Below, piece by piece: positions 55,231 to 60,386 of a stretch of DNA of 64,000 nucleotides (position 1 is the stretch's first letter; each line of letters starts with the position of its first letter). The translations under genes and the position numbers were made by a program. Source of the DNA: an uncultured SAR86 cluster bacterium. Lineage in GTDB: Bacteria > Pseudomonadota > Gammaproteobacteria > Magnimaribacterales > D2472. The stretch lies in assembly GCA_902541365.1 (NCBI GenBank), contig CACBQK010000003.1, positions 48,648 to 112,647 on the forward strand. The letters run 5' to 3'. The notes beneath the pieces are model-generated. The model saw only the letters and a list, made by a program, of their open reading frames with translations. It was not told where the DNA came from and did not search any database.

Positions 55231-56487
55231 TTATGTTTTATTAAACACCATTTCGTCAAAAGAATTCTCTGACTTAGCAACCACACAGGCAACTGTTGCA
55301 TCACCTGTGACGTTCACAGATGTTCTAATCATATCTAGAATTCTATCAACAGCTAATATTATTCCAATTGCTTCTAGAGGAAGACCGAACTGTTGAAGGA
55401 TTATTACAAGAGTTATAGTTCCTGCAGAAGGCACTGCTGCAGTTCCTATCGATGTTACAACTGCCAATAGGACTATTTGAACATACTGTATTAAAGTTAA
55501 ATCAATCCCTGAAATCTGGGCGATAAAAACGGTTGCCATACCCTGCATAATTGCAGTTCCATCCATATTAATTGTTGCACCAACTGGAACAACGAAAGAA
55601 GCTATATCTTTTTTAACACCCATATCCTGGTTAACAGTCTTTAACGTCACCGGAATTGTTGCCGCACTTGAAGAAGTAGAAAAAGCGAATATTGCAGCAT
55701 CTTTCATTTTATAAAAGAAATGTAATGGATTTATGGAAGCAAAAAATCTTAAGATCAGCGAATAAGTAACAAATGCATGAAAAAGAAGAACTGATATTAA
55801 TAAAATTACATACATGAATACATCTTGGAAAATATTAAAACCGTCTGTAATGACAAACTTTCCAATTAAACAGAAGACACCAACTGGAGCAAATTTCATA
55901 ACCATTAATACCAATTGAAGAAAAACCGTATTAAGTTTTTCAAATGACTCTGACAAGTTTCCCGTTAAGTGATTTGTTTTATTTAAAGCTAGGCCAAAGA
56001 GAATACTAAAAAAGACAATTGCTAACATCTGATTTTTAGCCATTGCATCTATTATGTTTGCTGGAACTATATTAACAATTGTTTGATATATCCCCTGTCC
56101 TTCTGGCAAATCTTTCAACGCAACAGTATCTGCCATCAAATAACCAGAACCAGGCTGAAAAATCGATCCAACCATAAGAGAAATTGATACTGCTATTGCT
56201 GTAGTAAGCAAATATAAGGCAATAGTTTTTGAAGCAATATTTCCAAAGCTTTTCAAACTTGATAGGGAAGCAATACCGGATACTAGCGAGAAAAATACTA
56301 ACGGGACTACCATTAGTTTTAAAAGATTTATAAAGATTTCACCGCCAAGTTTAAAAATATATTCAAAAATAAAATCTTTGAGGTCATCTGAAAAAGAGCT
56401 CGAATAATATAAAATAGCGCCTATTAGAGCGCCTAAAAACATTGCAATTAATACGTTTCTAGTTAGATTTTTGGGTGCATCAAGCAT
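55231..56487 (-). CDS. Dicarboxylate/amino acid:cation (Na+/H+) symporter, DAACS family
   Basis: FAFSTSSSAATIPVTL, GATINMDGTAIMQG, VPSAGTITLVIILQQFGLP. Confidence 0.92.
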   Translation of the reverse strand: MLDAPKNLTRNVLIAMFLGALIGAILYYSSSFSDDLKDFIFEYIFKLGGEIFINLLKLMVVPLVFFSLVSGIASLSSLKSFGNIASKTIALYLLTTAIAVSISLMVGSIFQPGSGYLMADTVALKDLPEGQGIYQTIVNIVPANIIDAMAKNQMLAIVFFSILFGLALNKTNHLTGNLSESFEKLNTVFLQLVLMVMKFAPVGVFCLIGKFVITDGFNIFQDVFMYVILLISVLLFHAFVTYSLILRFFASINPLHFFYKMKDAAIFAFSTSSSAATIPVTLKTVNQDMGVKKDIASFVVPVGATINMDGTAIMQGMATVFIAQISGIDLTLIQYVQIVLLAVVTSIGTAAVPSAGTITLVIILQQFGLPLEAIGIILAVDRILDMIRTSVNVTGDATVACVVAKSENSFDEMVFNKT

Positions 56488-59062: not shown

Positions 59063-59213
59063 AAATTCTTGTAACAATTCTGAAAATATTGCCCTTAATA
59101 TTAATATGTCTATTGCTTAGTTATTTCATTTGAGTAAACTTTACTTAGCATTTTAATTTGCACCATTTCCATGGTTAAAAAGGAACTCAATTATTTGAGT
59201 GAAGAGTTAAAAT

Positions 59214-59260
59214 CGTTCAACTTCTTAGGAAGTCGGAAGTAGGTGAAAACCGAAGGAACG
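59214..59260 (+). promoter_or_regulatory. glnA-type glutamine riboswitch aptamer, copy 1
   Basis: CGTTCAACTTCTTAGGAAGTCGGAAGTAGGTGAAAACCGAAGGAACG: P1 CGTTC/GAACG, P2 ACTTC/GAAGT, P3 GGT-GAAA-ACC; GGAAGTAGG...CCGAAGGAACG core. Confidence 0.85.
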
Positions 59261-59285
59261 CGCCCGTTAACAGGATAACGTTAAT

Positions 59286-59331
59286 CGTTCAACTCTTTAA
59301 GAGTCGGAAGTAAGCGAAAGCTGAAGGAACG
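59286..59331 (+). promoter_or_regulatory. glnA-type glutamine riboswitch aptamer, copy 2
   Basis: CGTTCAACTCTTTAAGAGTCGGAAGTAAGCGAAAGCTGAAGGAACG: same architecture with compensatory changes in P2 and P3; begins exactly 72 nt after copy 1. Confidence 0.85.
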
Positions 59332-59336
59332 CAACC

Positions 59337-59358
59337 GTTAAACCCGATCGAGTTTAAC
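59337..59358 (+). promoter_or_regulatory. Hairpin GTTAAAC-ccgatcga-GTTTAAC immediately 3' of the second aptamer
   Basis: Perfect 7-bp inverted repeat; no U-tract. Confidence 0.45.
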
Positions 59359-59375
59359 TTCAAAAATCCTGCAGA

Positions 59376-59405
59376 CTAAAAAATGCATGAAAATTTATTT
59401 TTTAG
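59376..59405 (+). promoter_or_regulatory. Hairpin CTAAAAAAT...ATTTTTTAG abutting/partly covering the glnII Shine-Dalgarno
   Basis: Perfect 9-bp stem 59376-59384 / 59397-59405; SD AGGAG at 59404-59408; start codon at 59415. Confidence 0.4.
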
Positions 59406-59414
59406 GAGATATTT

Positions 59415-60386
59415 ATGAATACTTTTGAATATATATGGCTTGATGGGTATCAGCCAGAACCAATGATGCGAAGTAAAGTTAAAGCCACTGAGGACGATAC
59501 TCCTCCGGATTGGTCTTTTGATGGATCTTCAACTCAGCAAGCTGAAGGTGGTAGTTCAGACTGCTTACTTTTACCGGTGCAAACCTATGCAAATCCAAAT
59601 GGGCATGATTTAGTTATGACTCAGGTTCAAGCTGCTGATCATACAACTCACCCCTCAAACTTTAGAGCTGCAGCTGCTGAAGTTGTTACAGATGAGTGGT
59701 GGTTTGGCTTTGAGCAAGAATACTTCTTTACTGACCCACAAACAGGTGAACCTCTCGGATGGGAAGATGGAACACCAAGACCTCAAGGAGAATATTATTG
59801 TGGAGTTGGTGCAGGTAATGTCGTTGGAAGAGAAATATCAGATGCTCACTTAGAAGCTTGTTTAGATCTTGGTATAACTCTAACTGGAACAAATGCTGAG
59901 GTTGCTCTTGGTCAATGGGAATATCAATGTTTTGGTAAAGGCATTAAAGCCGCTGATGATCTTTGGGTATCGAGATATCTTCTTTATAAGATTGCTGAGG
60001 AATATGGTGTTGGTGTAAATATTCATCCAAAACCTAAAACAGGAGATTGGAATGGTTCAGGAATGCATTGTAATTTCTCAAATGAGGAAATGAGAACTGC
60101 TGGATCTGAAGAGTTATTTTCTTCAATCTGCGATAAGTTAGGCGAAGTTCATGCAGAAGGAATCGCCTCATATGGTTCTGATAATGATATGAGACTTACC
60201 GGTCTGCATGAAACACAAAGCATCGATAAGTTCTCTTATGGTGTGAGTGATCGTGGTGCTAGTATTAGAATTCCAGTCTACACAGTTGAGCATGACTGGA
60301 ACGGATATCTTGAAGACAGAAGACCAGCATCTAATGCTGATCCATATAAGATATTAGCTCATCTAGTAGGAACTCTTACTAAATAA
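59415..60386 (+). CDS. glnII: Glutamine synthetase, GSII (eukaryotic-type) family
   Basis: WLDGYQPEPMMRSK, PPDWSFDGSSTQQAEGGSSDCLLLPV, WWFGFEQEYFF, GSGMHCNFSNEEM. Confidence 0.92.
   Translation: MNTFEYIWLDGYQPEPMMRSKVKATEDDTPPDWSFDGSSTQQAEGGSSDCLLLPVQTYANPNGHDLVMTQVQAADHTTHPSNFRAAAAEVVTDEWWFGFEQEYFFTDPQTGEPLGWEDGTPRPQGEYYCGVGAGNVVGREISDAHLEACLDLGITLTGTNAEVALGQWEYQCFGKGIKAADDLWVSRYLLYKIAEEYGVGVNIHPKPKTGDWNGSGMHCNFSNEEMRTAGSEELFSSICDKLGEVHAEGIASYGSDNDMRLTGLHETQSIDKFSYGVSDRGASIRIPVYTVEHDWNGYLEDRRPASNADPYKILAHLVGTLTK

What the first reader, a model, noticed from the sequence alone, without database searches (positions are those of the whole stretch)
59211..59341. Tandem glutamine (glnA-type) riboswitch aptamers in the leader of a GSII glutamine synthetase in a probable gammaproteobacterium
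Seen: two copies of CGTTCAACT[C/T]...[G/A]AGTCGGAAGTA[G/A]G[T/C]GAAA[A/G]C[C/T]GAAGGAACG start exactly 72 nt apart, both 3'-followed by CCGTTAA. P2 and P3 differ between copies but stay paired (ACTTC/GAAGT vs ACTC/GAGT; GGT/ACC vs AGC/GCT), which is covariation within one leader. Established: the glnA RNA motif is a glutamine-binding riboswitch class known mainly from cyanobacteria and marine metagenomes, often in tandem. Inference: here it controls a GSII enzyme, replacing the usual GSI/NtrC/GlnB logic, and the tandem copies could sharpen the response.
Basis: partly seen in the sequence, partly recalled or inferred. Interest (0 to 1): 0.85.

Follow-up and report, generated by a model that had tools for sequence, protein, structure and literature searches.

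The report
Glutamine riboswitch leader replacing NtrC/PII control
In this ocean bacterium (SAR86 group) the gene for glutamine synthetase is preceded by two glutamine-sensing RNA switches inside a larger folded RNA leader, and this leader occurs in exactly the two related lineages where the usual protein-based nitrogen-control system is largely missing.

Summary
Two RF01739 (glutamine riboswitch) aptamers lie at 59212-59264 (70.7 bits) and 59284-59335 (68.5 bits; cut-off 35), 72 nt apart, before a GSII glutamine synthetase of a SAR86-order gammaproteobacterium. They are part of a larger leader that Rfam does not cover: a compact pseudoknot plus hairpin upstream; a switching helix pair, anti-SD stretch and closing helix downstream. 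The upstream module is in all 18 searched genomes of two SAR86 lineages and none of 43 other relatives; among about 85,000 species genomes it lies beside glutamine aptamers, chance hits aside. In these lineages the aptamers precede GS and a TorF-porin(-glnK)-amtB operon, and in the window's genus also a TonB receptor beside purine genes. The same lineages lack sigma-54 (0/18) and mostly PII (2/18), while most sampled sister genera keep NtrC-like and/or sigma-54 sites before glnA. Likely function: glutamine turns GS and ammonium uptake off, probably at translation; it is the only glutamine sensor I found in this genus. The aptamer class is known. New here are the owner, the composite leader, the TonB target and the regulatory replacement. 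Ligand binding, direction and read-out are untested.

The parts
59148..59162 (+). 5' strand of long-range closing helix P0 (GCATTTTAATTTGCA)
   Evidence: Best duplex with the strand after the anti-SD linker, in the same register in nearly all of 31 glnA/TBDR/porin leaders; TBDR leaders differ on both sides but still pair.
59162..59185 (+). Compact H-type pseudoknot candidate: S1 ACCAT/ATGGT, S2 TTCC/GGAA
   Evidence: 96.3% of cells paired in 24 distinct leaders against 23-45% when slid; S2 outer pair C-G to U-A on both sides; S2 becomes an extended hairpin in two leaders that lost S1; module found only beside glutamine aptamers.
59186..59199 (+). Hairpin Pb (CTCAA/TTGAG)
   Evidence: Predicted in nearly all leaders with different pairs: CTCAA/TTGAG, CCCAT/ATGGG, CCCT/AGGG, CCTT/AAGG.
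59205..59215 (+). 5' strand of switching helix H_A (AGTTAAAATCG), running into P1 of aptamer 1
   Evidence: 6-8 core pairs plus UCG/CGA with 59349-59359 in all leaders scored.
59212..59264 (+). Glutamine riboswitch aptamer 1 (RF01739)
   Evidence: 70.7 bits, full length 1-53.
59265..59280 (+). Linker hairpin CGTTA..TAACG between the aptamers
   Evidence: Stem varies but pairs in the tandems with about 70-nt spacing; absent from the 52-nt-spaced TBDR tandems.
59284..59335 (+). Glutamine riboswitch aptamer 2 (RF01739)
   Evidence: 68.5 bits, full length 1-53.
59337..59358 (+). Hairpin H_B GTTAAAC..GTTTAAC; its 3' strand is also the 3' strand of H_A (59349-59359)
   Evidence: 7 pairs in every leader scored; mutually exclusive with H_A.
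59358..59370 (+). Linker with anti-Shine-Dalgarno stretches (CTTC.., TCCT)
   Evidence: Linkers fit their own SD region better than other leaders' (permutation p = 0.0024, 18 distinct leaders).
59370..59386 (+). 3' strand of P0; alternative partner ATTTTTTAG at 59397-59405 touching the SD
   Evidence: the alternative is strong in g1 glnA, GSI and g1 porin leaders, weak elsewhere.
59404..59410 (+). Shine-Dalgarno AGGAG
   Evidence: Read from the sequence, just upstream of ATG 59415.
59415..60386 (+). glnA, GSII glutamine synthetase, 323 aa
   Evidence: NF041605 2.5e-107; PF03951, PF00120; PDB glutamine synthetase matches.

Best explanation
The region is the 5' leader of a GSII glutamine synthetase mRNA carrying two glutamine (glnA-type, RF01739) riboswitch aptamers in one closed RNA domain. 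Shown by sequence: the aptamers; conserved flanking helices, including two mutually exclusive ones (H_A and H_B); anti-SD stretches; and co-occurrence with loss of sigma-54 and PII. Inferred: when glutamine is low, H_A (59205-59215 with 59349-59359) holds the anti-SD strand and invades P1 of aptamer 1, so the SD is free and GS is made. When glutamine is high, both P1 helices form, H_B replaces H_A, and the freed CUUC/UCCU stretch covers the SD, shutting off translation. Related leaders put porin-amtB and a TonB receptor under the same signal, so in this genus the RNA takes over the job of PII-NtrBC-sigma-54.
For: Two full-length RF01739 hits. Four copies in two places of the own genome, the second tandem before a TonB receptor. 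RF01739 in 96 of 204 genomes of the order but only one non-SAR86 genome in a sample of 387 of the class. Targets across g1 and g13: GSII, GSI, TorF porin-glnK-amtB, TBDR. The leader module occurs in 18/18 g1+g13 genomes and 0/43 others. PII absent in 16/18 against 1/43, Fisher 1e-11; sigma-54 absent in 18/18 against 10/43. NtrC-like palindromes and/or sigma-54 sites before glnA in most sampled sister genera of the family, none in riboswitch leaders. H_A and H_B in every leader scored; linker fits own SD, p = 0.0024; no intrinsic terminator in the window leader.
Against: No experiment. Thermodynamic folding did not show a consistent change in SD accessibility between the H_A state and the aptamer+H_B state, so the read-out is not demonstrated. 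The characterised glutamine riboswitches activate expression (cyanobacteria, PMC6316151); OFF is inferred from the target genes. PII persists in two genus members. The genomes are incomplete, and the Fisher values count related genomes as independent: there are only two lineages.
Confidence: 0.78

Rival explanations
1. Glutamine turns glnA ON, as in cyanobacterial type 1 switches, or acts on transcription termination rather than translation.
For: Known glutamine riboswitches activate (PMC6316151). The g1 porin leaders have a strong late hairpin with a U-rich arm, and f4 porin leaders have AAGG..CCUU followed by a T-run, both terminator-like.
Against: The targets are GS, Amt and a receptor, which are needed when glutamine is low. 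No terminator-like site in the window leader. Anti-SD/SD fit across leaders.
Confidence: 0.25
2. The upstream pseudoknot module is a second sensor (for example for 2-oxoglutarate or another N/C signal), so the leader is a two-input gate.
For: Strong sequence conservation of the module, own covariation, occurrence only with glutamine aptamers, two copies before one aptamer in porin leaders.
Against: Loops are very short, leaving little room for a pocket. Several leaders have lost it (L042, L047, L054, L040, L149). It sits inside P0, so a purely structural role is enough.
Confidence: 0.15
3. The conserved upstream block is a DNA site (operator or promoter element), not an RNA structure.
For: CCATnnnnnATGG is a palindrome and some columns never vary; no clear sigma-70 promoter was found upstream.
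Against: It lies downstream of the P0 5' strand, which pairs with the leader's 3' end with changes on both sides; Pb covaries in many forms; S2 covaries and survives loss of the palindrome in L014 and L145.
Confidence: 0.08

Closest known systems
Type 1 glutamine riboswitch (glnA RNA motif, RF01739; Weinberg 2010 PMC2864571)
   Same: Same aptamer over its full length. Tandem copies and links to GS, glutamate synthase, PII and ammonium transporters were already reported, from cyanobacteria and marine samples.
   Different: The review PMC6316151 says GS/PII/Amt links are restricted to environmental sequences of uncultured strains, and the class to cyanobacteria. Here an owner is identified (SAR86), with a composite leader, a TonB receptor target and loss of NtrC/PII/sigma-54.
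Cyanobacterial gifB (IF17) glutamine riboswitch
   Same: Same aptamer class, controls GS indirectly.
   Different: There it raises a GS inhibitor protein when glutamine is high; here it sits directly on glnA and should lower it.
Glutamine-II riboswitch (Downstream-peptide, RF01704)
   Same: Same ligand; partial motif similarity in P1/P2.
   Different: Only about 14 bits here against a threshold of 33: not a member.
NtrBC / sigma-54 / PII control of glnA
   Same: Same job: couple GS and AmtB synthesis to glutamine status.
   Different: Protein cascade acting at transcription; most sampled family relatives keep its DNA sites, this lineage has none.
Phage glutamine riboswitches (Melnitz, Mosig; PMC9004378)
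   Same: Same aptamer in a marine streamlined-bacteria setting.
   Different: Near a phage tmRNA, not N-assimilation genes; the authors found none in the OM43 host.

Membership tests
RF01739 glutamine riboswitch, type 1 | Covariance-model match over threshold, full length | tested here: met
   70.7 and 68.5 bits against 35, positions 1-53.
RF01739 glutamine riboswitch, type 1 | P1/P2/P3 pairing with conserved CGGAAGUA..GAAGGAACG core | tested here: met
   No non-standard pairs marked in either copy (alignment).
RF01739 glutamine riboswitch, type 1 | Leader of a nitrogen-metabolism gene | tested here: met
   About 80 nt before GSII glnA.
RF01739 glutamine riboswitch, type 1 | Selective L-glutamine binding | not testable with these tools
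   Needs in-line probing or ITC.
RF01739 glutamine riboswitch, type 1 | Glutamine-dependent control of expression | not testable with these tools
   Needs reporter fusions.
RF01704 Glutamine-II | Covariance-model match over threshold | tested here: not met
   14.6 and 13.9 bits, E 0.29 and 0.46, cut-off 33.
NtrC/sigma-54-controlled glnA | TGCAC-N7-GTGCA enhancer and TGGCAY-N5-TTGC promoter upstream | tested here: not met
   None within 300 nt in 8 riboswitch leaders; perfect sigma-54 sites in 9 of 20 relatives without the leader.
NtrC/sigma-54-controlled glnA | Genome encodes sigma-54, NtrC and PII | tested here: not met
   Own genome (about 91% complete): sigma-54 0, PII 0, NtrC none over cut-off.
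GSII glutamine synthetase | GlnII profile match | tested here: met
   NF041605 2.5e-107, 358.9 bits (below the 500-bit equivalog cut-off); Pfam GS domains over cut-off.

The most novel reading that the evidence does not exclude
The pseudoknot-hairpin module 5' of the aptamers is a new small sensor RNA, so the SAR86 leader is a two-input RNA gate that reads glutamine and a second nitrogen or carbon signal and by itself replaces the PII-NtrBC-sigma-54 cascade.
Probability: 0.12. Interest if true: 0.88.

Novelty: new variant of a known kind. Interest (0 to 1): 0.62.

Why it matters
GS- and Amt-linked glutamine aptamers were seen in 2010 in marine DNA without an owner; a 2018 review still assigns them to uncultured strains. 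This work places such leaders in SAR86, among the most abundant surface-ocean bacteria, and ties them to loss of sigma-54 and mostly of PII. It is a case in which an RNA switch appears to have taken over the job of a core protein signalling cascade during genome streamlining. It also predicts that glutamine controls an outer-membrane receptor for what may be purines, and it offers a small RNA module with no Rfam counterpart to test.

Tried and rejected
Rfam at permissive thresholds on three leaders found nothing for the upstream module. Thermodynamic switching simulations with enforced aptamers, H_A or H_B did not give consistent SD exposure changes; the H_B register was off by one, corrected. 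The P0/H_D competition is strong in some leaders and absent in TBDR and most f4 glnA leaders, so it is not a general read-out. A first sigma-54 scan used the wrong spacer, corrected. The MFE fold of the window leader pairs AAGAGUU with P2 of aptamer 2, probably a misfold of the unliganded model. Scans of viral contigs with the pseudoknot pattern failed twice. Klahn 2018 (PMC6212724) is not held. An open frame starting in the pseudoknot (ATGGTTAAA..) is not conserved and was dropped (read).

Full report
Observation. cmscan of the whole window gives only four hits over gathering score: two tRNAs and two RF01739 glutamine aptamers at 59212-59264 (70.7 bits) and 59284-59335 (68.5 bits). P1 starts are 72 nt apart. 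P2 and P3 differ between copies but stay paired. The gene about 80 nt downstream is a 323-aa GSII. The host is a SAR86-order gammaproteobacterium: the window is G000:C3:48648-112647, and contigs of same-genus genomes carry SAR86 titles (contig lengths).

Same genome, second leader. The 1.02-Mb assembly has four RF01739 hits in two tandems. The second, G000:C4:91086-91188, precedes a TonB-dependent receptor (PF00593, PF07715). In all TBDR loci examined with that side present, the receptor is divergent from a PF00860 permease that looks AzgA-like; where enough sequence is held, it is usually followed by a purine-type phosphoribosyltransferase (weak xanthine PRTase match). A role in purine scavenging is an inference from neighbours. 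In other genus members two to three aptamers precede TorF porin-(glnK)-amtB; in G000 amtB sits at a contig edge, so its leader is missing.

Distribution. RF01739 is in 96 of 204 genomes of the order but in a class sample of 387 only SAR86 members and one other 1.1-Mb genome, where it precedes gltB. Elsewhere in SAR86 single or tandem aptamers precede gltB, a CP_ATP-grasp gene and short ORFs, including DUF4278-like and DUF4177-like peptides.

The leader. Alignment of leaders from glnA, TBDR and porin genes shows conserved parts outside the aptamers. (i) A pseudoknot candidate, S1 CCAU/AUGG and S2 CUCC/GGAG: 96.3% of cells are paired against 23-45% when slid, but covariation is modest, with one pair changed on both sides. 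Two leaders that lost S1 keep S2 as a longer hairpin. (ii) Hairpin Pb with many alternative pair sets. (iii) P0, a closing helix between the 5' end and the strand after the anti-SD linker; it is the best duplex in nearly all of 31 leaders, with z mostly -1.4 to -4.7 (weaker in three), and TBDR leaders changed on both sides. (iv) H_A and H_B, mutually exclusive helices sharing GUUUAAC, present in every leader scored; H_A runs into P1 of aptamer 1. (v) Anti-SD stretches whose sequence follows the SD: CUUCUAUAG/CUAUAGGAG, CUUCUAAA/UUUAGGAG, or UCCU/CUCCU (p = 0.0024 by permutation). That test treats related leaders as independent.

The module is specific. The pattern CCATN{0,1}YTCCATGGNNNAAAAGGRRC occurs in 45 stretches of about 85,000 species genomes. 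All but five are SAR86 or marine MAGs, each 46-107 nt upstream of a glutamine aptamer (in L101 the stored stretch ends before the aptamer); the five others are in unrelated organisms without an aptamer. A covariance model finds it in 18/18 genomes of genera g1 and g13 and 0/43 other relatives, each match next to an aptamer.

Regulatory replacement. In these 18 genomes sigma-54 is absent (0/18; full-length in 33/43 others), and PII is absent in 16/18 (present in 42/43 others). GSI over cut-off occurs only in G039, behind a riboswitch tandem. No g1 genome has NtrC over cut-off. Before glnA, 9 of 20 relatives without the leader have a perfect TGGCAY-N5-TTGC site, and many have TGCAC-N7-GTGCA palindromes; riboswitch leaders have neither. 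Family f3 also lacks full-length sigma-54 and has no such sites; some of its members have the aptamer before gltB. The GSII tree does not group the riboswitch-led proteins (5 changes; starred branches force at least 2), so leader and enzyme have not travelled strictly together. How the leader came to be in two lineages (transfer or loss elsewhere) is open.

Mechanism. Proposed: glutamine forms P1, H_A gives way to H_B, anti-SD covers the SD, GS falls. The conserved pieces are shown; direction and read-out are inferred. ViennaRNA did not support a clear SD change, though it cannot treat the pseudoknot or ligand. Porin leaders may use termination instead.

Literature. Weinberg 2010 (PMC2864571) reported tandem glnA RNAs and links to PII, GS, GOGAT and Amt in cyanobacteria and marine DNA. 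A 2018 review (PMC6316151) says these links are restricted to environmental sequences and the class to cyanobacteria. I found no held paper on glutamine riboswitches in SAR86; the SAR86 isolate paper does not mention riboswitches (PMC11582366). The library holds only open-licence papers, so prior reports elsewhere are possible.

Noticed in passing
L056 (G010), L090 (G038), L091 (G043), L092 (G046): Glutamine aptamers with a long conserved insertion in P3 (GGAAGATAGGAAAACCTCTTTCTT..AAGAAAGGCAAGCAAGTACCG..CGGGAACGAGACCGAATATCT), scoring only 27-35 bits: a possible elaborated subtype that RF01739 under-detects.
   Followed up: no
L059, L063, L090, L091: Short YRG-repeat ORFs behind glutamine riboswitches in other SAR86 genera; two tested match DUF4278 just under cut-off. 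DUF4278 is the N-terminal part of the cyanobacterial GS inhibitor IF17.
   Followed up: partly
L057, L058, L067: Tandem glutamine aptamers followed by a hairpin over the SD and a roughly 52-54-aa peptide ending in FFPYYL, conserved across several SAR86 genera; no Pfam match over cut-off for the one tested.
   Followed up: partly
L060, L069: DUF4177-like small proteins (MTKWEYKIV...) directly behind a single glutamine aptamer in genus g9.
   Followed up: partly
L055, L061, L065: Glutamine aptamer about 75 nt before a circularly permuted ATP-grasp gene in genera g2 and g5 (Pfam tested on L055 only).
   Followed up: partly
L152, L155 (G504): A 1.1-Mb non-SAR86 gammaproteobacterium with two single glutamine aptamers, one before gltB, each followed by a hairpin starting in the aptamer tail.
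   Followed up: partly
window 55231-56487: Sodium:dicarboxylate/glutamate symporter gene (PF00375, closest to GltP) about 2.7 kb upstream of the glnA leader, opposite strand; no riboswitch found.
   Followed up: no
L133: A MAG titled Rickettsiales bacterium carries the SAR86-type double pseudoknot plus glutamine leader, probably a binning or naming error.
   Followed up: no
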